Below are positions 32,630 to 43,469 of a DNA stretch of 44,468 bases, piece by piece. The notes beneath the pieces were generated by a model that worked only from the letters and a program-made list of their open reading frames with translations, was not told the origin of the DNA and did no database searches. A program made the position numbers and the translations under genes. The DNA comes from Ruminococcus sp. (GTDB lineage Bacteria; Bacillota; Clostridia; Oscillospirales; Acutalibacteraceae): NCBI GenBank assembly GCA_017405065.1, contig JAFRBD010000081.1:1-44468 (forward strand), given 5' to 3'. Position 1 is the stretch's first letter. Every line of letters begins with the position of its first letter.

Positions 32630-32713
32630 AATCATTCGTCATGAAACGGGATGAATACTTTTGTCAGAACAGAAAACGGTCTTGAATTCTACCGAAATTA
32701 GACGAAGATGGTA

Positions 32714-32742
32714 TTCACAAATCCGAAAAAAGATGTTATACT
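32714..32742 (+). promoter_or_regulatory. Predicted promoter of the HTH-NTPase-CYTH gene
   Basis: -35 TTCACA (32714-32719), 17-base spacer, -10 TATACT (32737-32742). The start codon is only ~22 bases downstream, so the transcript has a short leader. Confidence 0.55.
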
Positions 32743-32764
32743 CAGGTCGTCAGGAGGGGTGAAG

Positions 32765-34075
32765 GTGAACGATTATTCATTCGGCAGCTTTCTGTATGAG
32801 AAAAGAAAGCAAAGCGGATATACACAAAGCGAATTGGGCGAGATGCTTGGCGTAACGGGCAAAGCTGTTTCAAAATGGGAAAACGGAACCGCAAAACCGA
32901 CTACGCAGGCAATCAGAAAGATAGCGGCTCTTTGGGGCGTTTCGATCGATGAATTGCTGACGATGAGGGAGGAGCCAAAGATGAATATAACAAAAATCGT
33001 GATCACGGGAGGACCCTGCGCGGGAAAAACGACCGGCATGAGTTGGATCCAGAACGCATTTACCGAACGCGGCTATATGGTGCTGTTTGTGCCGGAGACG
33101 GCGACCGAGCTGATCACAGGCGGCGTCGCTCCGTGGACTTGCGCTTCTGACGAGGATTTTCAAAGATGTTTATTGCGATTACAGATGGAAAAGGAAAAAG
33201 TGTTCCTTGAAGCGGCAAAAACCATGGATGCGGAAAAGATCCTGATCGTATGTGACAGGGGCGCTTTGGATAACAAGGCATACATGACGCAAGCGGAATT
33301 CATCCGTACGCTCAGCAGCTTCGGAGCAAATGAAGTCGAGCTGCGCGATGAATACGACGCGGTATTTCATTTGGTGACTGCCGCAAAGGGCGCTGAAGAA
33401 TTCTATACGACAGCCAATAACGCCGCGCGGACGGAATCCATAGAAGAGGCGGCAGCCCTTGACGATCAATTGATCAACGCATGGACAGGACATCCTCATT
33501 TCAGGATCATAGACAACAGAACGGATTTTGAAGGAAAAATGAAACGCCTGATCACGGAGATAGCGTCTTTCCTCGGCGAACCGGAGCCGTTTGAGATCGA
33601 GAGAAAGTATCTGATCGAATACCCTGATATCAAGCGGCTTGAGACTTTGCCGAATTGTGAAAAGGTCGAGATCATCCAGACCTATCTGATTTCCGGTCAA
33701 GATGAAGAGGTGAGGATCCGTCAGCGCGGGGTTAACGGACATTATATCTATTTTGAAACGCGCAAAAAGAAGATCAGCGAGCTGAAACGGGTCGAAGTGG
33801 AACGTCGGCTGACCAAGGATCAATACCTGCAAAGATTGATGGACGCCGACACGGACCGCCGACCGATCCGTAAAGACCGCTACTGCCTGTCGGACGGCAG
33901 TCAATACTTTGAGATCGATGTTTATCCGTTTTGGAATGATAAAGCGATCATGGAAATAGAACTGTCAAACGCAGAAGAAGAGATCCGCTTTCCGAAAATG
34001 ATCATGGTGATCCGTGAGGTTACGGATGACGATCAGTATAAGAATTCTTCATTGGCAAGGATAACGAAGGAATAA
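32765..34075 (+). CDS. Three-domain fusion: XRE-type HTH, NadR/Ttd14-like P-loop NTPase, CYTH triphosphatase domain
   Basis: A 436-residue soluble protein. Residues 1-65 are an XRE/Cro HTH (SGYTQSELGEMLGVTGKAVS, then KWENGTAKPT). Residues ~74-270 are a P-loop NTPase of the AAA_28/NadR kinase type, with Walker A GGPCAGKTT (82-90) and ILIVCDRGALD (159-169). Residues ~274-430 are a CYTH domain with the diagnostic ExExK motif as E277, E279, K281 (FEIERKYLI), then basic and acidic strands EVRIRQR, YFETRKK and EVERRL. CYTH enzymes bind or cleave triphosphates (tripolyphosphate, thiamine triphosphate); AAA_28-CYTH pairs are known, as in fly Ttd14. The HTH makes it a likely DNA-binding, nucleotide-responsive regulator (inference). 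The GTG start at 32765 has AGGAGGGG five bases upstream. A second good start exists at 32981. Confidence 0.85.
   Translation: MNDYSFGSFLYEKRKQSGYTQSELGEMLGVTGKAVSKWENGTAKPTTQAIRKIAALWGVSIDELLTMREEPKMNITKIVITGGPCAGKTTGMSWIQNAFTERGYMVLFVPETATELITGGVAPWTCASDEDFQRCLLRLQMEKEKVFLEAAKTMDAEKILIVCDRGALDNKAYMTQAEFIRTLSSFGANEVELRDEYDAVFHLVTAAKGAEEFYTTANNAARTESIEEAAALDDQLINAWTGHPHFRIIDNRTDFEGKMKRLITEIASFLGEPEPFEIERKYLIEYPDIKRLETLPNCEKVEIIQTYLISGQDEEVRIRQRGVNGHYIYFETRKKKISELKRVEVERRLTKDQYLQRLMDADTDRRPIRKDRYCLSDGSQYFEIDVYPFWNDKAIMEIELSNAEEEIRFPKMIMVIREVTDDDQYKNSSLARITKE
32966..32983 (+). promoter_or_regulatory. Internal ribosome binding site and ATG inside the HTH-NTPase-CYTH gene
   Basis: AGGGAGGAG (32966-32974) lies six bases before an in-frame ATG at 32981, exactly at the junction between the HTH and the NTPase domain (residue 73). 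A shorter 364-residue NTPase-CYTH product could be made from the same gene. Confidence 0.6.
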
Positions 34076-35740: not shown

Positions 35741-35777
35741 CGACCCCGGACAGAATGTTGTTCGGGGTCGGTTTTTA
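35741..35777 (+). terminator. Intrinsic terminator of the YdjC/ChbG gene
   Basis: A 12-base stem CGACCCCGGACA / TGTTCGGGGTCG (one G-U pair), then GTTTTT. Confidence 0.9.
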
Positions 35778-35799: not shown

Positions 35800-35828
35800 T
35801 AGACAAACGATGAGATAATTGTTATAAT
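35800..35828 (+). promoter_or_regulatory. Promoter of the eight-gene operon beginning with ADP-ribosylglycohydrolase
   Basis: -35 TAGACA (35800-35805), 17-base spacer, -10 TATAAT (35823-35828). It is nearly the same as the promoter at 34914-34942: both have AACG directly after the -35, AGAT mid-spacer and ATTG near the -10. Confidence 0.75.
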
Positions 35829-35890: not shown

Positions 35891-36934
35891 ATGACAGAAG
35901 AATTAAGGCTCAGCCGTTATAAAGGTTGTCTGCTGGGCGGCGCTGTCGGCGACGCTTTAGGCTATCCTGTTGAATTTTTAGGAGAGACGTCCATCTTTTA
36001 TCAATACACAGAGCAGGGGATCAGAGAATTGAGTGAAGCGGGGAATCCCGCGCGTATTTCCGACGATACCCAGATGACCCTGTTCGCGGCGGAGGGCATC
36101 ATGATGGGCGACGTCCGTACAGCCTATCTGGAGTGGCTCGGTACGCAGGGCGATACGTCGCATATGGATACAAAGCATCCGAAAACCCGCCTTTTCAGGG
36201 AGCCCCGCCTTCACGCGATGCGCGCTCCGGGCAATACCTGCATGTCCGCCTTGATAAGGGGAGGCGGAAGCATGAAGGAGCCTTTGAATCACAGCAAGGG
36301 ATGCGGAACCGTGATGCGTGCCGCTCCGTCGGGTCTGGCGTGCGGAGTCGCCGGTGAAAAAGGCGACGCCGCGGTGTACCGCAATGCTGTTTCTGACGCC
36401 GCGATCACGCACGGTTCTCCGATGGCTTGGTGCAGCGCCAACGCTTTGGCGCAGATGGTGCATGAGATCATCCGGAACCGTCCCGAAAGAGATTACCGCC
36501 TGGAAGACGTTGTCACCATGAAGAAGATCACAGCGGGCCCCGCGCTGACGGCGGTTGCCGATGAAGCCGCAGAAAAACTGGAGCTTGCCGTCAGCTTGGC
36601 GCTTGATCCTTCGGTCGGCGATCTGGACGGCATCCATATGCTCGGCGAGGGCTGGGTAGCGGACGAAGCGCTGTATATCGCGGTATTCTGCGCGGTGCGG
36701 TATCAGGACGACTTTGCCGCTGCGATCCGTGCCGCGGTCAATCACAGGGGCGACAGCGACTCCACCGGAGCCGTATGCGGCAATCTGCTCGGCGCGTGGC
36801 TGGGCGAGAAAGCCGTCAGAGAGGCGTATGACCTGAATGATCTGGAGCTGGCGGATGTGATCGAGGATACCGCCGAAAGGCTTTATCGCTTTGCCGCCGA
36901 ACAAAACCGGCCGCGTCATGAGGAAGGGATATGA
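35891..36934 (+). CDS. ADP-ribosylglycohydrolase family protein (DraG/ARH-like)
   Basis: A 347-residue all-helical hydrolase that removes ADP-ribose from proteins, nucleic acids or small molecules. It starts with the family's RYKGCLLGGAVGDALGYPVE. Metal-binding residues are in ISDDTQMTLFAAEG (DDT) and NHRGDSDSTGAVCGNLLGAW (GDxDSTG); both motifs are intact, so it should be active. GGAG lies seven bases upstream. It is the first gene of the tight operon that runs to 42438 and overlaps the MBL gene by four bases. No ADP-ribosyltransferase is in the window, so the substrate is unknown. Confidence 0.93.
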   Translation: MTEELRLSRYKGCLLGGAVGDALGYPVEFLGETSIFYQYTEQGIRELSEAGNPARISDDTQMTLFAAEGIMMGDVRTAYLEWLGTQGDTSHMDTKHPKTRLFREPRLHAMRAPGNTCMSALIRGGGSMKEPLNHSKGCGTVMRAAPSGLACGVAGEKGDAAVYRNAVSDAAITHGSPMAWCSANALAQMVHEIIRNRPERDYRLEDVVTMKKITAGPALTAVADEAAEKLELAVSLALDPSVGDLDGIHMLGEGWVADEALYIAVFCAVRYQDDFAAAIRAAVNHRGDSDSTGAVCGNLLGAWLGEKAVREAYDLNDLELADVIEDTAERLYRFAAEQNRPRHEEGI

Positions 36935-37707
36935 AAGTATCGGTTTTAGCGGAGAATACCTCCTGCAGTCCGTCCTTCGGCTGTGAGCATGGGCTGTCGT
37001 TACATATTGAAATCAATGGGCATCGTATCCTGTTTGATATGGGTCAGACGACGCTTTTTGCCGATCATGCGGAGAAGCTCGGCGTCGATCTGTCGCGTGT
37101 CGATCATGCCGTGCTGTCCCATGGTCATTACGATCACGGGGGCGGATTGAGACGCTTTTTGCAGCTGAACGATCATGCGCCCGTTTATCTGAGCCGCTTT
37201 GCCTTTGAGCCGCATTATAACGGTGAAGGGAAATACATCGGTCTGGATACCGATTTGATGAAGTCGGACAGGTTTGTTTTTATCGGTGAAGAATACGAGA
37301 TCACAGAGGGGATCGCGCTGTACTCCTGCAACGACAGAAAAAAAGTCCAAAGGATCGACTGCGCGGGTCTTTCCGCGGAGCGGGACGGCAGAAGGATCCC
37401 TGAGGATTTTCGCCATGAGCAGTATCTTCTTATTTCTGAAAACAAAAAAAGAATACTGGTCAGCGGATGCTCGCACAAGGGGATCGTCAATATCATGAAT
37501 TGGTTTCATCCCGATGTACTGATCGGCGGTTTTCACTTGATGAAAATGCCCATGGGAAATCCGCTGGCAGACCTCGCGCGGGAACTGGACGCTTTTGATA
37601 CCGCGTATTATACCTGTCACTGTACGGGAGCCGGGCAGTATGCTTATATGAAGCCGTATATGAAAAACCTGCATTATCTGTCCGCGGGACAGACGATTGT
37701 CATATAG
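36931..37707 (+). CDS. MBL-fold metallohydrolase (COG1237 type)
   Basis: A 258-residue metallo-beta-lactamase fold protein. The metal motif is LSHGHYDHGGGL (HxHxDH) near residue 60; further ligands are likely the His in SGCSHKGIVN and in TCHCTGAG. The N-terminus VLAENTSCSPSFGCEHGLSL is that of the COG1237 group, some members of which are annotated as dihydropterin-type synthases; the true reaction is unknown. Its ATG overlaps the stop of the ADP-ribosylglycohydrolase gene (ATGA), which implies coupled translation. Confidence 0.88.
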   Translation: MKVSVLAENTSCSPSFGCEHGLSLHIEINGHRILFDMGQTTLFADHAEKLGVDLSRVDHAVLSHGHYDHGGGLRRFLQLNDHAPVYLSRFAFEPHYNGEGKYIGLDTDLMKSDRFVFIGEEYEITEGIALYSCNDRKKVQRIDCAGLSAERDGRRIPEDFRHEQYLLISENKKRILVSGCSHKGIVNIMNWFHPDVLIGGFHLMKMPMGNPLADLARELDAFDTAYYTCHCTGAGQYAYMKPYMKNLHYLSAGQTIVI

Positions 37708-37716
37708 GGAGAAAAA

Positions 37717-38325
37717 ATGAAACAGGAAGATTTATTGTTTTACGGAGAATTTGCGCCGAAGCTGCAGGAGATCGAGGAGCTGCTGATGCGCGAGATACAG
37801 GCGATGCTTGACAGCATCAGCACCGATCCCGAGACCGCGCCGGCGGAGCATATCAAGTGCCGCGTCAAGGGCGCCGAAAGTCTGAAGGAGAAGCTCAGGA
37901 GGAACGGCTTGCCTGAAACGGCGAGGGCGGGACTGGAGAACCTGTCCGACCTTGTCGGCGCGCGCGTCATCACGCATTTTATCGGCGATATCTACGCGGT
38001 TTTGGAGCTGATCCGGCTGAATAAGAGCTGGCGTGTTGTCGCCGTAAAGGACTATATCGCCAATATGAAGCCTAACGGATATCGCAGCCTGCATGTCCTG
38101 CTGAACGTCCCGTTCGGCGTGGGCGGTATCCCCGATATCAATGTGGAGATACAGCTGCGCACCATCGCGATGGATTGCTGGGCGAGTCTGGAGCATCAGC
38201 TCAAATACAAGAAAAGCATCAAGAACACCGCCTTGATCGTCGATGAGCTCAAGCGCTGTGCCGACGAGATGGCTTCCACGGATCTGTCCATGCAGACCAT
38301 ACGCGATCTGATACAGAGAGGATAA
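37717..38325 (+). CDS. Small alarmone synthetase, RelQ-like GTP pyrophosphokinase
   Basis: A 202-residue protein made of a single RelA/SpoT synthetase domain, which makes (p)ppGpp from ATP and GDP/GTP. The motifs are RVKGAESLKEKL, LSDLVGARVI, DYIANMKPNGYRSLHVLL and VEIQLRTIAMDCWASLEHQL. Hydrolase, TGS and ACT domains are absent, as in RelQ/RelP. It lies nine bases after the MBL gene and eight bases before a response regulator, so alarmone production is probably co-expressed with the two-component system. Confidence 0.92.
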   Translation: MKQEDLLFYGEFAPKLQEIEELLMREIQAMLDSISTDPETAPAEHIKCRVKGAESLKEKLRRNGLPETARAGLENLSDLVGARVITHFIGDIYAVLELIRLNKSWRVVAVKDYIANMKPNGYRSLHVLLNVPFGVGGIPDINVEIQLRTIAMDCWASLEHQLKYKKSIKNTALIVDELKRCADEMASTDLSMQTIRDLIQRG

Positions 38326-38333
38326 GGGGATCA

Positions 38334-39005
38334 ATGATGAAGGTATTATACGCAGAGGACGAGCGGCAGCTGTCGGTCGCCGTCACCGAGATATTGAAGA
38401 TGGAGGGCTTTGAGGTCACCGCCGTTTATGACGGCCAGGAGGCTCTTGACGTTTTGGAAAAGAGTTTCTTTGACGTGGTGATCCTCGATATCATGATGCC
38501 GAAAAAGGACGGTATCGAGGTGCTGGAGACCATGCGGAAAAACGGCAACTTCACCAGCGTGCTGATGCTGACCGCCAAGGCGACGGTGGATGACCGCATT
38601 ACGGGACTGTCGACGGGCGCCGACGATTATCTTGCCAAGCCCTTTGCCATGAAGGAGCTGATCGCGCGCCTGAATTCGCTGATCCGCCGCAGCAGCTCTT
38701 ACCGCCATACAACGGTCAAATATCGGAATATCGAGCTTGATACCAATACCTGTGAGCTGAGATCGGATAAGGGCAGCCTGCGGCTGAACAATCCCGAGGC
38801 GGAGCTTCTGGCGTTCCTGATCCATCATGCCGGTGCTTCCTATACAGCCGAACAGATCAACGAGCTTGTATGGGAAGGAAAGGAAAGCCCTGAGAAGGCA
38901 GAACTGTATCTGTTCTATCTGAAGAATAAGCTCAGACAGATCCGTTCAGCCGTGAATGTGCGTATCGAAAACGATACCTACGCTTTGTGTGAGGAAGAGT
39001 CATGA
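38334..39005 (+). CDS. OmpR-family response regulator
   Basis: A 223-residue regulator. The receiver domain (1-~120) has phospho-acceptor D52 (VVILDIMMPKKDG), acidic residues E8-D9, and the Lys in DDYLAKPFAM. The C-terminal winged-helix DNA-binding domain (about 130-220) has the NPEAELLAFLIHHAG and LYLFYLKNKLRQI helices. Two adjacent ATG codons are possible starts. Its 3' end overlaps the histidine kinase gene by four bases. Confidence 0.95.
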   Translation: MMKVLYAEDERQLSVAVTEILKMEGFEVTAVYDGQEALDVLEKSFFDVVILDIMMPKKDGIEVLETMRKNGNFTSVLMLTAKATVDDRITGLSTGADDYLAKPFAMKELIARLNSLIRRSSSYRHTTVKYRNIELDTNTCELRSDKGSLRLNNPEAELLAFLIHHAGASYTAEQINELVWEGKESPEKAELYLFYLKNKLRQIRSAVNVRIENDTYALCEEES

Positions 39006-40252
39006 AGAAACTGCGCAAAAAGATCGTATTCGGCGTATTCTTATCCGCTACGGTCGTTTTCGTTCTGACGATCGTTTTGGTGTCGGTCTCGCTGAACGTG
39101 CAGATCACCCGCCGCGCCGATAACATGACAAAGCTGATGGAGGAGAACAACGGTATTCCTCCCGCCAAAAACGAATTTGAGAGAATGGATGACGAACTGG
39201 GGATCCGTATCGCCGACTATAACGAGGAATCGCCCTACCGCCTGCGCTTTTTCACTGTGTTTTATGATAAAGACGGTTATTTGTCCAGCGACGTCACGCA
39301 TATCGCGGCGATCGATGAAAATACCGCCGTCGAGATGGCGGATATCGTTAAGAGCAGTTCCAAACCGACGGGGAATTATGAAAACTACCGTTATCGTATC
39401 AGCGAGAACGGCGATATGGTCATATTTGTCGATTATTCCTATGAGTATCAGGCGACAGAATGGCTGACGCTGCTGCTCGCTCTGATCGCACTGGGGTTCA
39501 TTGTGATGATCACCGTGGTGTTCTATTTTCTTTCCAAGCGGATCGTCAAGCCGTTTGAAGAGAATGCGCGTATGCAAAAGCAGTTTATCACCGACGCCAG
39601 TCATGAACTGAAAACGCCGCTCGCGATCATATCCGCCAACGCGGAGGTGCTCGCCTATAAGACGGGTGAGAATGAGTGGATCGATAATATCACCGCTCAG
39701 GTCGACCGTGTCAGCGGTCTGGTCAATGAGCTGCTGACCCTCAACCGTCTCGAAGAGGTGGAGGAGATCACGGATATCGAGCCTGTTGATCTCAGCGCTC
39801 TGGTGACGGATACGGCGTCGTCCTTTGACGAAGTGTTCCGAAGCAAAAATGTCGGAAGAGTCGATGATATCGCGTGCGGTGTGTTCCTGAACGGCAACAA
39901 GGCTCAGCTCGAGCGACTGATCTCCGTTTTGTTGGAAAACGCTTCTAAGTACGTTACGGAAAACGGGGATGTAGCGATTAAGCTCAGGAAGGATACGAGA
40001 TATACGACGCTTCATATCTTCAACAGTTGCGAGATCGATAAAGAAGTTGATTACAGCCACTTGTTCGATCGCTTTTACCGTCCCGATTCATCCCGCGCGT
40101 CTTCGACGGGCGGTCACGGCATCGGCTTGTCTATCGCCAAGCGGATCGTTACGCTGCATAACGGAACGATCGAAGCGGTACCTTCCGAAGACGGTTTGAG
40201 CATCAACGTGAAGCTGTCCAATAAGCTCAAAATGAGCAAGCAGAAAAGGTGA
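39002..40252 (+). CDS. Membrane sensor histidine kinase
   Basis: A 416-residue kinase. Transmembrane segment 1 (about 8-31), an extracellular sensor domain (~32-150), transmembrane segment 2 (~153-177), a short linker, then HisKA with ASHELKTPLAII (phosphorylated H201) and a HATPase domain with LLENASKYV (N box), RPDSSRAS and GGHGIGLSIAKRIV (G box). It pairs with the response regulator gene that it overlaps. The signal is unknown. Confidence 0.95.
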   Translation: MKKLRKKIVFGVFLSATVVFVLTIVLVSVSLNVQITRRADNMTKLMEENNGIPPAKNEFERMDDELGIRIADYNEESPYRLRFFTVFYDKDGYLSSDVTHIAAIDENTAVEMADIVKSSSKPTGNYENYRYRISENGDMVIFVDYSYEYQATEWLTLLLALIALGFIVMITVVFYFLSKRIVKPFEENARMQKQFITDASHELKTPLAIISANAEVLAYKTGENEWIDNITAQVDRVSGLVNELLTLNRLEEVEEITDIEPVDLSALVTDTASSFDEVFRSKNVGRVDDIACGVFLNGNKAQLERLISVLLENASKYVTENGDVAIKLRKDTRYTTLHIFNSCEIDKEVDYSHLFDRFYRPDSSRASSTGGHGIGLSIAKRIVTLHNGTIEAVPSEDGLSINVKLSNKLKMSKQKR

Positions 40253-40256
40253 GTGG

Positions 40257-40733
40257 ATGGAAATAAGAATCAGACGATTGGAAAGCAATATGATCACGAT
40301 CGGTACCGGTATCATCGCTTTCGGTTTTTGGTCGTTTATCAAATTTGTGTTGACCTTTTTTATCATGGGGTCGGAGTATGTAGGCATCACCGATGATCAA
40401 TACCGCACCTTTTTGATGATCTTTGTGTGGGCGTTTGCCGCGTTAAGCGCTCTGGTATATCTGTGGATCGGACTGTCCGCAAGAGCGGAGGGGAAAGGAA
40501 AGCACAAATCTGTTTTGTATTTGATCATGCTGGGCGTGATCATCCTGTTCAGTTCCGTTGTGATCGTTTTAGAGATCTTGTCGCTGACGTCCTTGACCAA
40601 GCTGGATGAAATGATCGTAACGCTGATCATTGATGTGACGCGGATGGTATTCCTCGTTGAGCTGATGATCTATTCGATCACCCTCAGAATCCTCAGAAAA
40701 CGGCAGAGAGCGGGGGAGGGGAGCAAAGCATGA
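40257..40733 (+). CDS. Hypothetical membrane protein with four transmembrane segments
   Basis: A 158-residue protein with four hydrophobic segments (around residues 15-37, 48-69, 82-108 and 120-145), a short charged loop (RAEGKGKHK) and a basic C-terminus. I do not recognise a family. It starts four bases after the kinase gene and overlaps the next gene by four bases, so it belongs to the operon. A role as a membrane partner of the downstream protein or of the kinase is possible. Confidence 0.75.
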   Translation: MEIRIRRLESNMITIGTGIIAFGFWSFIKFVLTFFIMGSEYVGITDDQYRTFLMIFVWAFAALSALVYLWIGLSARAEGKGKHKSVLYLIMLGVIILFSSVVIVLEILSLTSLTKLDEMIVTLIIDVTRMVFLVELMIYSITLRILRKRQRAGEGSKA

Positions 40734-41899
40734 ATTCGGATTTTCATTATTACGCGACCTATTGCGCCGCGATCCTCGCCGGTTATTCGCATGAAGAGGC
40801 GCAGGATATCGCGTACAGCGATCAATTGGTGGATTTTTGTACCCGTACGCTGCTTATCAAGCTGAAAGGCCCCGCATCTGCGGCGACGACTCAGCTTCAG
40901 CTTGAACTGATGGACGCGCGTACCGGCAGGATCGGTCTGCAGGATATCACGCGAATCTGGTCCTCGTTCCATTTTCTGCCTTATGATCTGCAGGCACAAC
41001 CGCCGAAACGCTGTTTCAGACGTTACAAACAAAAGTATCGGCTGATCTGCAAGCCGAACGGCGAGCTTCTCGTTCCTACCGTTGACCTTGCAAAGAATAA
41101 ATCCCTGCAGGCGGTCGGTCTTGCCATGCATGTGCTGGCGGATACATGGGCGCATCAGAATTTTGCGGGAACGCCTTCGCTGGTGATCAATAACACGAAC
41201 CGGTATTTTTATGAGTTGTTTGAGGAAGGCGACGGTTACCGTGAAAAGAAGATCAGCTTCCGTCACAGTGTTTCCGCTCCCGACGATCTTTCAAACAGCG
41301 TTTATACAAGCAGCTTGTACAGCAACAGCGAGAATTCGATCATGAATCTCGGTCACGGAAGAGCGGGCCATCTGCCGGATTACAGCTTTATCCGCTACAA
41401 ATACCTGCCCGCATGGGGCGACTATGAAGAGATCGTCAAAGATAACCCCTCGGATTATTGGCATGCCTTCATTCAAATGATCTATGCGATGAAGTATCTG
41501 CGCGGTGAGTATGAGAGCTTCGAGCCGCATCGCTATGATGCGCAGGCTGCCGAGCCGTATCGTGATGAGATCGAACGGATCATCAGAACGCGTCAGACGG
41601 ATGCGTCGGAGGATTGGAAGGCGCTGGGTAAAAAGCTGTCCGGAGCTGAACCGGAACCGTTTGATATCGATCGGTATCAGGATGAATACAGCAAAGCGCC
41701 GAAGGATGAAAAGGACGACACCTTTATCGGCAGGTTCATTCTTGCCGCTTTGGCGCAAAAAAGTATGGTGACGAACCGTATTTATCAGTCCGGAAGCAAG
41801 CTCGCGGGGTATTCGATCGATTACAGCGCGAAAGGCTTTAAAGGCATAAAGGATTTTAAAATGCTGATCAAAAACGCTGCGGGAGGGAAGAAGTCATGA
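40730..41899 (+). CDS. Conserved protein, DUF6765-like, with a possible metal-binding HxxxDxxxH motif
   Basis: A 389-residue soluble protein. The start DFHYYATYCAAILAGYSHEE and the following AYSDQLVDFC recall the DUF6765 family (assigned from memory). The middle contains MHVLADTWAHQNFAG, in which H134, D138 and H142 form H-x3-D-x3-H. This motif and the N-terminal His/Asp resemble the zinc ligands of zinc-dependent phospholipase C and S1/P1 nucleases (family knowledge). A GHGRAGHLPDY segment and a later WHAF may add ligands. No signal peptide is seen. It overlaps both neighbours by four bases. A metal-dependent hydrolase function is inferred only. Confidence 0.7.
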   Translation: MNSDFHYYATYCAAILAGYSHEEAQDIAYSDQLVDFCTRTLLIKLKGPASAATTQLQLELMDARTGRIGLQDITRIWSSFHFLPYDLQAQPPKRCFRRYKQKYRLICKPNGELLVPTVDLAKNKSLQAVGLAMHVLADTWAHQNFAGTPSLVINNTNRYFYELFEEGDGYREKKISFRHSVSAPDDLSNSVYTSSLYSNSENSIMNLGHGRAGHLPDYSFIRYKYLPAWGDYEEIVKDNPSDYWHAFIQMIYAMKYLRGEYESFEPHRYDAQAAEPYRDEIERIIRTRQTDASEDWKALGKKLSGAEPEPFDIDRYQDEYSKAPKDEKDDTFIGRFILAALAQKSMVTNRIYQSGSKLAGYSIDYSAKGFKGIKDFKMLIKNAAGGKKS

Positions 41900-42438
41900 G
41901 TTTGTTTCAACACATCAAGAGCTTTGTGACAGGCTTGTTTCTGATTGCGGTCGCGGTCGTTTTCTTTCTGATCCCCCGGAACGCCTATGACACTATTTAC
42001 ATCATCATCAGTTTGATCGTGCTGGTGTACGGTCTCCGCCTGTTATGGTTCTATTTCACGATGGCGCGTCATATGGTGGGCGGAAAGATCACGCTGTATC
42101 AGGCGATCATCGTGCTGGACGCGGCATTGTTCACGATGACGATCGCCAAGATGTCCGACTACATCGTGCTGGCTTACCTGCTCGGTGTATACGCGTTTGC
42201 CGGCGTGATCGATATTCTCAGAGCGTTTGAAGCCAAGAAGAACGACTCGCCTGTTTGGAAAAAGAAGATCATGATCGGATTTGCCGAATCGGGGTTTGCG
42301 ATACTGCTGGTAGTTGTCGCGCTTATCCTGCGGGATATCAATTTCCTTGTCTACGGCTTTGCCGTCAGTTTGGCTTCCTCCGGTATCCTCAGGATCTATG
42401 ACGCTTTCCGAAAGACGGCGGTCGTCTATATCCAATAA
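41896..42438 (+). CDS. HdeD/DUF308-like membrane protein
   Basis: A 180-residue protein with six hydrophobic segments, arranged as three similar pairs with the HdeD/DUF308 pattern (short helices with G/Y-rich turns such as YIIISLIVLVYGLRLLWF and DINFLVYGFAVSLASSGILR). Members of the family are linked to acid or stress tolerance in some bacteria, but this is not established here. It is the last gene of the eight-gene operon and is followed by a strong terminator. Confidence 0.75.
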   Translation: MSLFQHIKSFVTGLFLIAVAVVFFLIPRNAYDTIYIIISLIVLVYGLRLLWFYFTMARHMVGGKITLYQAIIVLDAALFTMTIAKMSDYIVLAYLLGVYAFAGVIDILRAFEAKKNDSPVWKKKIMIGFAESGFAILLVVVALILRDINFLVYGFAVSLASSGILRIYDAFRKTAVVYIQ

Positions 42439-42458
42439 TTGTCACCCAAAGAAAATAA

Positions 42459-42508
42459 GACGCCGTGAAGAGAGAAGACTGCATCTTCTGTTCTTCACGG
42501 CGCCTTTT
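42459..42508. terminator. Bidirectional terminator at the end of the eight-gene operon
   Basis: Outer arms CGCCGTGAAGA / TCTTCACGGCG (42461-42471, 42492-42502) and inner arms AGAAGA / TCTTCT are followed by CCTTTTG. On the minus strand it can also terminate the dockerin gene at 42542. Confidence 0.85.
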
Positions 42509-42541
42509 GTTGTGTCCGTTTATATTTTGTGTACAGCTGCT

Positions 42542-43456
42542 TTACAGGAAAGCGCTCTCAGCCGAAGTATATGCCGAGGTCATTTCTCCGATGGGATAAT
42601 CGATTTCCAGCATCGCTATTTTGCGCTGTATCAGCGTCGCATCGGTGATGTCGAGCTTTTTGCCTGCAATACATCCTCTCAGTTGGATGAGTCCATCGGG
42701 ATCATCCGTCAATTGAGCGATCATACGCTGGATGACCGTCACGTCAAAAACCGTGACCCGTCCGTCGCCGTCTGCATCGCCGATAAGATAGCGATACAGA
42801 TATTCGGCTTTGATGTTATTCTCTTTTGCGTACTGCGCCGCGTAGGAATCTCTTTCACAGCGGATGATCAGCTCGTTGTCATTCTCAAATGCGTTGTCCG
42901 CGATGCTTTCGATATTGTCGGACAGATACGCATAGCGCAGTCCGGTGCATTCGCCGAACGCTCGGATTCCGATCGTCTTTACAGAGTCGGGAAGAGCGAT
43001 CTGTGTCAGAGATGAGCAGTTGTAAAAGCACTGCTCGGGGATAAGATCGATACCGTCCTCGATCGTCAGGACTTCAAGTCCCGTGCATCCTTGGAAAGCG
43101 CCGAAAGACAGCGCGACATTTGAGGGAATACTCAGCTCTGTGAGTGAGGAGCAGCCGTAAAAGGCACAATTGCCGATATCTACCAGTCCCGTCGCCTTGT
43201 ACAGATCCAGGGACGTCATCGATAGGCCGTAGAAGGCGTAATGATCGATGTACACGACCGGCGCACGCAGCAGTTTTTCGGGGATCGTCACATCCGTATT
43301 GCTGCCGTCATAATCGTGAATGGTAGCCTCACCGTTTTCGTTGATGTCAAAGGTGAACCCGTTAAGCTCCAGATAGCTGTCGGCGGCATGCGCGACAGCT
43401 GATGTGCTGAAAATGAGCAGGATCAGAGAGATACAGATACATATTAATCGTTTCAT
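42542..43456 (-). CDS. Secreted leucine-rich-repeat (BspA-type) protein with C-terminal dockerin
   Basis: A 304-residue exported protein. The start was set at 43456 (MKRLICICISL) with GAGG eight bases upstream. The signal peptide is residues 1-~25 (cleavage after AVAHA). Residues ~45-220 are BspA-like leucine-rich repeats of the pattern IGNCAFYGCSSLTELSIPSN and IGIRAFGECTGLRYAYLSDN. Residues ~228-290 are a type I dockerin. Its first loop is canonical (DADGDGRVTVFD). The second lacks the calcium aspartates (RGCIAGKKLDITD) but keeps the ATLIQRKIAML helix. It has no catalytic domain, so it may serve adhesion within or to the cellulosome/amylosome complex (inference). It follows the 48-residue peptide gene with a 13-base gap. 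Confidence 0.9.
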   Translation of the reverse strand: MKRLICICISLILLIFSTSAVAHAADSYLELNGFTFDINENGEATIHDYDGSNTDVTIPEKLLRAPVVYIDHYAFYGLSMTSLDLYKATGLVDIGNCAFYGCSSLTELSIPSNVALSFGAFQGCTGLEVLTIEDGIDLIPEQCFYNCSSLTQIALPDSVKTIGIRAFGECTGLRYAYLSDNIESIADNAFENDNELIIRCERDSYAAQYAKENNIKAEYLYRYLIGDADGDGRVTVFDVTVIQRMIAQLTDDPDGLIQLRGCIAGKKLDITDATLIQRKIAMLEIDYPIGEMTSAYTSAESAFL

Positions 43457-43469
43457 ATGCAAAACCTCG

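What the first reader, a model, noticed from the sequence alone, without database searches (positions are those of the whole stretch)
35891..42438. Eight-gene operon combining ADP-ribose removal, alarmone synthesis, a two-component system and a putative membrane/metal enzyme set
ADP-ribosylglycohydrolase, MBL hydrolase, RelQ-like synthetase, response regulator, histidine kinase, a four-helix membrane protein, a DUF6765-like protein and an HdeD-like protein are joined by overlaps or gaps under 10 bases, from one promoter to one strong terminator. The mix of two nucleotide-based signals with a sensor pathway and unknown membrane proteins looks like a stress- or envelope-response system not described to my knowledge.
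Basis: partly seen in the sequence, partly recalled or inferred. Interest (0 to 1): 0.75.

Follow-up and report, generated by a model that had tools for sequence, protein, structure and literature searches.

The report
Alarmone–sensor operon with membrane enzyme cassette
In a Ruminococcus-type gut bacterium, a widespread gene trio that couples a stress sensor to the alarm molecule ppGpp has been joined end to end with a second conserved trio for a probable membrane-linked metal enzyme, suggesting one sensor controls both.

Summary
The eight genes are there as described, closely packed between a good promoter match and a strong terminator hairpin. But the eight-gene unit is not the conserved thing. 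It is two separate three-gene modules joined together, plus two late additions.

Module 1: small alarmone synthetase (SAS)–response regulator–histidine kinase. All 35 genus genomes with a close SAS have the regulator directly downstream. TCS-linked SASs form a well-supported clade that leaves out B. subtilis YwaC (RelP) and, on a long and unsure branch, YjbM (RelQ). "RelQ-like" is not supported. relPRS of S. mutans is a published operon of this kind (PMC4963387, passages).

Module 2: four-helix protein–DUF6765–DUF308, found in several families and often with its own upstream gap. DUF6765 keeps eight invariant His/Asp residues, resembling a zinc phospholipase C.

The modules are fused in 16 of 35 genomes (18 not, 1 unresolved). 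MBL adjoins in two, ARH only here.

Best reading: one sensor drives both ppGpp synthesis and a membrane-associated hydrolase. Functional coupling is inferred, not shown. New variant of a known kind.

The parts
35741..35770 (+). terminator-like hairpin behind the upstream YdjC-like gene; marks the 5' border of the unit
35800..35828 (+). sigma-70-like promoter (TAGACA-17-TATAAT, extended TG)
   Evidence: consensus match only
35891..36934 (+). ADP-ribosylglycohydrolase (ARH/DRAG-like); accessory, beside the SAS only in this genome of the 35 read
36931..37707 (+). MBL-fold hydrolase related to PDB 2p4z and TM1679 (3h3e); accessory, beside the SAS only here and in G021 of the 35 read
37717..38325 (+). 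small alarmone synthetase (RelA_SpoT domain) of a TCS-linked clade; module 1
38334..39005 (+). response regulator, receiver plus divergent winged-helix domain; module 1
39002..40252 (+). membrane sensor histidine kinase with about 120 residues between its hydrophobic segments; module 1
40257..40733 (+). four-helix membrane protein without a Pfam family (TM4); module 2
40730..41899 (+). DUF6765, predicted metal-dependent hydrolase with invariant H6 D35 H81 H134 D138 H142 H209 D217 and no predicted membrane segment; module 2
41896..42438 (+). DUF308 (HdeD-like) membrane protein; module 2
42454..42511 (+). strong terminator-like hairpin ending the unit

Best explanation
The unit is two separately conserved modules joined into one operon. 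Module 1 (SAS-RR-HK) is a self-contained sensor-to-alarmone circuit: the membrane kinase senses an envelope or membrane condition, phosphorylates the regulator, and the regulator controls its own operon, so (p)ppGpp synthesis follows the signal by enzyme amount rather than by RelQ-type pppGpp feedback. Module 2 (TM4-DUF6765-DUF308) is a membrane-associated hydrolase unit: DUF6765 is a soluble, phospholipase-C-like metal enzyme held at the membrane by two multi-pass partners. In part of this Ruminococcus-type genus module 2 came under the promoter and kinase of module 1, so one signal slows growth through (p)ppGpp and switches on membrane remodelling. ARH and MBL were added later in front and are probably passengers. 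Shown: gene content, the conservation of each trio, the separate SAS clade, the fusion and its spread, the invariant His/Asp set. Inferred: that the regulator controls this operon, that the signal is an envelope signal, the enzyme's activity and substrate, and physical contact between the module 2 proteins.
For: SAS-RR linkage: 35 of 35 genus genomes with a close SAS (57% identity or more) have RR directly downstream and 34 of 35 also HK, the exception (G143) ending at a contig edge. Of the second SAS group in the genus (43-48%), 14 of about 16 were fetched and 14 of 14 have RR and HK; of the third (40-43%), 6 of 22 were fetched and 0 of 6 have either. Outside the genus: of 29 order loci read, 3 have RR after the SAS and 3 have HK before it; of 28 further phylum loci 9 have RR right after the SAS, one of them (L281) only 27% like the window's. 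Tree: on one side of a 100* branch 61 of 62 rows are TCS-linked, on the other 2 of 50 (L256, and L281, which I had labelled unlinked). Careful tree: the linked clade has 100/100 support and a stem of 1.26, with B. subtilis YwaC outside. SAS genes elsewhere are under TCS control: VraRS in S. aureus, WalKR in B. subtilis (PMC10117726, passages); RelRS in S. mutans, thought to sense oxidative stress (PMC7674665, passages). Module 2: TM4 and DUF308 accompany DUF6765 in 43 of 54 loci with DUF6765 at 54% identity or more and in 0 of 26 remote ones. All 59 aligned DUF6765 keep the eight His/Asp; 18 of 59 touch Pfam Zn_dep_PLPC at E<1, best 7e-4. Two other kinds of TCS adjoin module 2 (L065/L069; L075/L076/L078), and a membrane GDPD, an Mbeg1-like protein and a kinase fused to DegV are among its neighbours. 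The fusion is kept in 16 of 35 genomes with TM4 identity down to 29%. DUF6765 and SAS-TCS occur together more than by chance: 27 of 50 against 21 of 111, p 1e-5.
Against: 18 of 35 genus genomes with module 1 lack the fusion, and many module 2 copies stand apart, so the coupling is not obligatory. Co-occurrence is weak once 13 linked genomes are removed: 14 of 37 against 21 of 111, p 0.026, with no correction for kinship; for the close SAS alone 7 of 22 against 28 of 126, p 0.41 (genome lists typed by hand, and two of the 13, G143 and G008, are counted as linked from broken contigs). Three near-identical loci have lost all but 40 codons of DUF6765 in the fused copy while keeping TM4 and DUF308, so the enzyme is dispensable there. 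No shared regulator site was found; upstream sequences were only read by eye. The window's own DUF6765 has no hit to Zn_dep_PLPC and no solved structure matches meaningfully. Of 20 neighbours of module 2 scanned, most have no evident lipid or signalling role, for example prephenate dehydrogenase, GNAT, RNase_T, P5CR and a family 9 glycosidase.
Confidence: 0.5

Rival explanations
1. Only module 1 is a regulatory circuit. Module 2 is downstream by chance or for convenience of expression and is not part of the response.
For: 18 of 35 genus genomes carry module 1 without module 2 behind it. Many module 2 copies have a gap of 100 bases or more upstream and unrelated neighbours. Co-occurrence apart from linkage is weak.
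Against: Fusion in 16 of 35 genomes, with gaps of a few bases and TM4 identity down to 29%, means it has been kept for long or regained. Two other kinds of TCS sit beside module 2 elsewhere.
Confidence: 0.3
2. TM4 and DUF308 are sensory or regulatory partners of the histidine kinase, and DUF6765 is an optional effector; module 2 feeds the sensor rather than being its output.
For: In G047, G089 and G086 the fused copy keeps TM4 and DUF308 while DUF6765 shrinks to 40 codons; the overlap with DUF308 is kept.
Against: This looks like one event in three near-identical loci. Module 2 without a kinase next to it is common, so TM4 and DUF308 do not need this kinase.
Confidence: 0.12
3. A single eight-gene stress or phage-response system that joins ADP-ribose removal with alarmone signalling.
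For: All eight genes are co-directional and tightly packed in this genome.
Against: ARH adjoins the SAS in 1 of 35 and MBL in 2 of 35 genus genomes with a close SAS, while relatives of both lie elsewhere in the genus. In 6 of the 34 fetched loci less than 1.5 kb upstream was available. The defence library was not searched, so a defence role was not tested directly.
Confidence: 0.05

Closest known systems
relPRS operon of Streptococcus mutans (RelP synthetase with the RelRS two-component system)
   Same: A small alarmone synthetase gene in one operon with a response regulator and a kinase (PMC4963387, passages seen).
   Different: The S. mutans proteins were not compared here. In this lineage a membrane cassette is fused behind the kinase and the operon opens with ARH and MBL genes. 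The SAS clade leaves out B. subtilis RelP.
RelP (YwaC, SAS2) and RelQ (YjbM, SAS1)
   Same: Same synthetase domain; among solved enzymes YwaC is the best match (5e-35) and YjbM a weaker one (8e-27). At the RelQ positions F42, T44 and N148 the window has H, K and D, as YwaC does.
   Different: Falls in a separate clade of TCS-linked SASs.
PF20551 DUF6765
   Same: Full-length match, E 6e-73.
   Different: Flanked by TM4 and DUF308, which were not found in any of 26 loci with remote DUF6765.
PF00882 zinc-dependent phospholipase C
   Same: Weak similarity in 18 of 59 relatives and an HxxxDxxxH core within eight invariant His/Asp; the likeness to the zinc ligands of phospholipase C is from recall.
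   Different: The window protein has no hit; the best relative has E 7e-4 and the two scores seen, 16.9 and 11.9 bits, are under the cut-off of 26.8.

Membership tests
relPRS-type SAS-TCS operon | SAS, RR and HK genes adjacent and co-directional | tested here: met
   Window gaps 8 and -4; RR adjacent in 35 of 35, HK too in 34 of 35 genus genomes with a close SAS
relPRS-type SAS-TCS operon | co-transcription and control of the SAS by its own TCS | not testable with these tools
   No expression data; RelRS control of relP is reported for S. mutans (PMC7674665, passages)
relPRS-type SAS-TCS operon | orthology of SAS, RR and HK to S. mutans RelP, RelR and RelS | not tested
   No S. mutans sequence was fetched
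RelQ (YjbM) | allosteric-site residues F42, T44, N148 | tested here: not met
   H, K, D at these positions
RelP (YwaC) | same clade as YwaC | tested here: not met
   YwaC falls outside the TCS-linked clade, which has 100/100 support
RelA_SpoT synthetases | synthetase domain match over cut-off | tested here: met
   PF04607 100.8 bits against 27; aligns with solved enzymes
DUF6765 (PF20551) | profile match over cut-off | tested here: met
   246.8 bits against 26.6
Zn_dep_PLPC (PF00882) | profile match over cut-off | tested here: not met
   No hit for the window protein; best of 59 relatives E 7e-4; in two relatives scored singly 16.9 and 11.9 bits against 26.8
Zn_dep_PLPC (PF00882) | zinc site and lipid hydrolysis | not testable with these tools
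DUF308/HdeD | profile match over cut-off and multi-pass membrane protein | tested here: met
   34.5 bits against 25; five hydrophobic peaks. No NCBIfam family at E 0.1 or better
ADP-ribosylglycohydrolase | profile match over cut-off | tested here: met
   186.7 bits against 26.2; far below the NCBIfam DRAG and Tri1 cut-offs

The most novel reading that the evidence does not exclude
There is a third, old branch of small alarmone synthetases in Bacillota, neither RelP nor RelQ, that is almost always encoded with its own two-component system. In one Ruminococcus branch that dedicated circuit has taken over a membrane-bound, phospholipase-C-like enzyme unit, so one kinase sets both (p)ppGpp level and membrane lipid turnover.
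Probability: 0.35. Interest if true: 0.7.

Novelty: new variant of a known kind. Interest (0 to 1): 0.5.

Why it matters
The papers I saw describe control of small alarmone synthetases mainly in Bacillus, staphylococci and streptococci. A clade that travels with its own kinase and regulator gives a direct, testable answer for other Bacillota: the signal is wired in by the neighbouring TCS. The fusion with the DUF6765 unit would also give a functional handle on DUF6765 and on the four-helix protein; the search of the held library found no paper naming DUF6765.

Tried and rejected
RelQ identity: rejected on allosteric-position residues and tree. The residue signature does not separate TCS-linked from unlinked SASs: D at the third position is found in all but one of the rows, in both groups, so it only argues against RelQ.

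Structure of DUF6765: not possible, the predictor was off. Profile hits, invariant columns and a profile search of solved structures were used; the last gave one meaningless hit at E 8.4.

Regulator binding site: upstream regions of 31 SAS genes were printed and read by eye; promoter-like sequences are visible in several, no common regulator motif was established, and no motif finder was run.

Origin of the fusion: the SAS-RR-HK tree needs 3 to 4 changes of state and allows one gain with two losses (L157 was set aside there as a contig edge, but one search shows 710 bases behind its kinase without TM4, so it counts as not fused here). The DUF6765 tree needs 6, of which starred branches force 2, and one row (L019) was labelled alone although its contig is cut. 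A single origin is left open.

A single eight-gene system: rejected on neighbourhoods. Defence role: not tested, padloc was not searched.

Plasmid SASs: 28 plasmid records match, all under 60% identity; only the best, on a Ruminococcus albus 7 plasmid (43%), was looked at, and no TCS gene is annotated in the 8.6 kb around it.

TCS-like genes not counted as linkage: RR and HK on the opposite strand in front of the SAS in L214 and L258; a 60-residue HK-like match at E 9e-5 in L279.

Papers: (DUF6765) returned none. Searches were searches on SAS, relP and SAS-TCS operons; for most results only the listing was seen. Passages were read in PMC4963387, PMC7545056, PMC7674665, PMC10117726, PMC3153485 and PMC5794853, and in the last also section 6 in full.
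Full report
What was checked. The eight ORFs, their strand, their order and their tight spacing are as stated. Domain searches confirm the family labels except for the four-helix protein, which has none, and the RelQ label, discussed below. A hairpin lies behind the upstream YdjC-like gene, a good sigma-70-like promoter match follows, and a strong hairpin closes the unit. The genome is a 2.52 Mb draft in 160 contigs; 161 genomes of the genus, this one included, were searched. The nearest relative, G021, has a contig of the same length (52,265 bases) as a goat-ileum record named Ruminococcus sp. RGIG2388, so the window very probably comes from a Ruminococcus-type gut bacterium. The own genome also has a long Rel; no TCS gene was found in the 13 kb fetched around it.

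Two modules. Searching the genus with four of the proteins (DUF6765, SAS, ARH, MBL) and reading the neighbourhoods splits the unit. Module 1 is SAS-RR-HK. In the genus, 35 of 161 genomes have a close SAS (57% identity or more). All 35 have the regulator directly downstream, within 14 bases or overlapping, and 34 of 35 the kinase as well; the exception, G143, ends at a contig edge. A second SAS group (43-48%) has about 16 members; 14 were fetched and 14 of 14 show SAS-RR-HK. A third (40-43%) has 22; 6 were fetched and none shows a TCS. In 394 genomes of the order, 128 have an SAS at 1e-25; of the 29 loci returned, 3 have RR after the SAS and 3 have HK in front; a second SAS of G493 also has RR and HK. 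In 398 genomes of the phylum, 48 match at 1e-30; of the 28 new loci returned, 8 have an RR after the SAS (7 with HK also seen) and a ninth, L281, has a distant RR, 27% identical. These loci have at most 1.5 kb on each side, so TCS genes further off would be missed.

SAS phylogeny. A tree of 112 SASs splits at a 100* branch into 62 rows and 50 rows. Of the 62, 61 are TCS-linked: 59 with RR behind the SAS, of which L146 and L264 show RR only, and 2 with the TCS in front. The unlinked one, L260, lies 200 bases from a contig end, on the side where its sister L255 has its RR-HK genes. Of the 50, 2 are linked: L256, and L281, which carried the label 'none' in the tree. With B. subtilis YwaC and YjbM added, the linked clade keeps 100/100 support and a stem of 1.26, and YwaC lies among unlinked SASs; YjbM does too, but on a very long branch whose place is unsure. 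Loci were taken mainly by similarity to the window SAS, not by linkage. At the three RelQ positions named in PMC5794853 (Phe42, Thr44, Asn148: passages; that RelP lacks the RelQ set: section 6) the window has H, K, D where YjbM has F, T, N and YwaC has H, K, D. So the SAS is not RelQ-like in this respect. It scores best against YwaC among solved enzymes yet is not in the YwaC clade.

Module 2. TM4 and DUF308 accompany DUF6765 in 43 of 54 loci whose DUF6765 is at least 54% identical to the window's. Of the other 11, four are cut by contig ends (L048, L072, L079, L083) and in four (L055, L058, L060, L078) the upstream ORF clusters with TM4. None of 26 loci with remote DUF6765 (27-36%) has either partner at this sensitivity. 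The triad occurs in records named Ruminococcus, Lachnospiraceae, Saccharofermentans, Erysipelotrichaceae and one Atopobiaceae, mostly metagenome-assembled, so the names are not certain. All 59 aligned DUF6765 keep H6, D35, H81, H134, D138, H142, H209 and D217; 18 of 59 have a weak match to zinc-dependent phospholipase C. No hydrophobic segment is predicted in DUF6765, so it is probably cytosolic; that its partners tether it is inference.

The fusion. The kinase is directly followed by TM4 in 16 of 35 genomes, not in 18, and 1 (G143) is cut; its DUF6765 contig begins with a kinase fragment in front of TM4, so it is probably fused too (L017). Eleven of the 16 show the whole triad, two end at a contig edge after TM4 (G077, G008), and three (G047, G089, G086) keep TM4 and DUF308 but only 40 codons of DUF6765, with both of its ends and the ATGA overlap with DUF308. 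In the tree of module 1 all 16 fused rows lie in one supported clade of 25 rows that also holds 8 unfused. Elsewhere module 2 has other signalling neighbours: a GGDEF regulator with two hybrid kinases in L065 (same gene clusters in L069), and a PF06580-type kinase with a regulator in L075 (same clusters in L076 and L078). A few of its neighbours touch lipids or membranes: a membrane glycerophosphodiesterase, an Mbeg1-like protein, a kinase fused to DegV, a mechanosensitive channel; most of the 20 scanned do not. The lipid role of Mbeg1-like and DegV proteins is from recall.

The additions. ARH relatives occur in 32 of 161 genus genomes, this one included, and MBL matches in 77 of 161 (66 at E 1e-30). 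Next to the SAS, ARH is found only in this window and MBL in this window and G021, of 35. In 6 of the 34 fetched loci less than 1.5 kb upstream was available. In G021 the order is YdjC-MBL-SAS, so ARH probably entered last.

How it most likely works. In better-known Bacillota SAS expression is set by TCSs: VraRS in S. aureus and WalKR in B. subtilis (PMC10117726, passages), RelRS in S. mutans (PMC7674665, passages). The simplest reading of module 1 is the same logic with its own dedicated TCS. Putting module 2 behind the kinase would give the same signal two outputs, slowed growth and membrane remodelling. The main weakness is that the second output rests on gene order: DUF6765 is present in 27 of 50 genomes with an SAS-TCS against 21 of 111 without (p 1e-5), but after removing 13 linked genomes only in 14 of 37 (p 0.026, kinship ignored), and for the close SAS alone in 7 of 22 against 28 of 126 (p 0.41).

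Novelty. The operon type has a published precedent, so this is a new variant of a known kind. In searches I saw no report of an SAS clade tied to TCSs across families or of the DUF6765 fusion; most results were seen as listings only, the library is open-access only, and PMC3153485 (passages) names further SAS groups such as cloRel in Firmicutes that I did not compare, so the clade may already have a name.

Noticed in passing
window 32708-34075 (+): One protein joins an XRE-type helix-turn-helix, an AAA_28 NTPase domain and a weak CYTH match.
   Followed up: partly
window 42542-43462 (-): Convergent neighbour with BspA-type leucine-rich repeats and a sub-threshold dockerin match.
   Followed up: partly
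L065:6728-9454: Histidine kinase and receiver fused to a DegV domain (E 2e-44), 17 bases upstream of the TM4 gene of a DUF6765 triad; same gene cluster in L069.
   Followed up: partly
L141, L142, L143 between TM4 and DUF308: DUF6765 reduced to a 40-codon ORF that keeps both ends of the protein and the overlap with DUF308.
   Followed up: yes
G141:C1:90429-91586: A second, separate DUF6765 (67%) in a genome that also has the fused copy.
   Followed up: no
L254, L255, L256: SAS genes with the two-component genes in front instead of behind.
   Followed up: partly
L281: An SAS outside the TCS-linked clade with a distant response regulator 45 bases downstream.
   Followed up: partly
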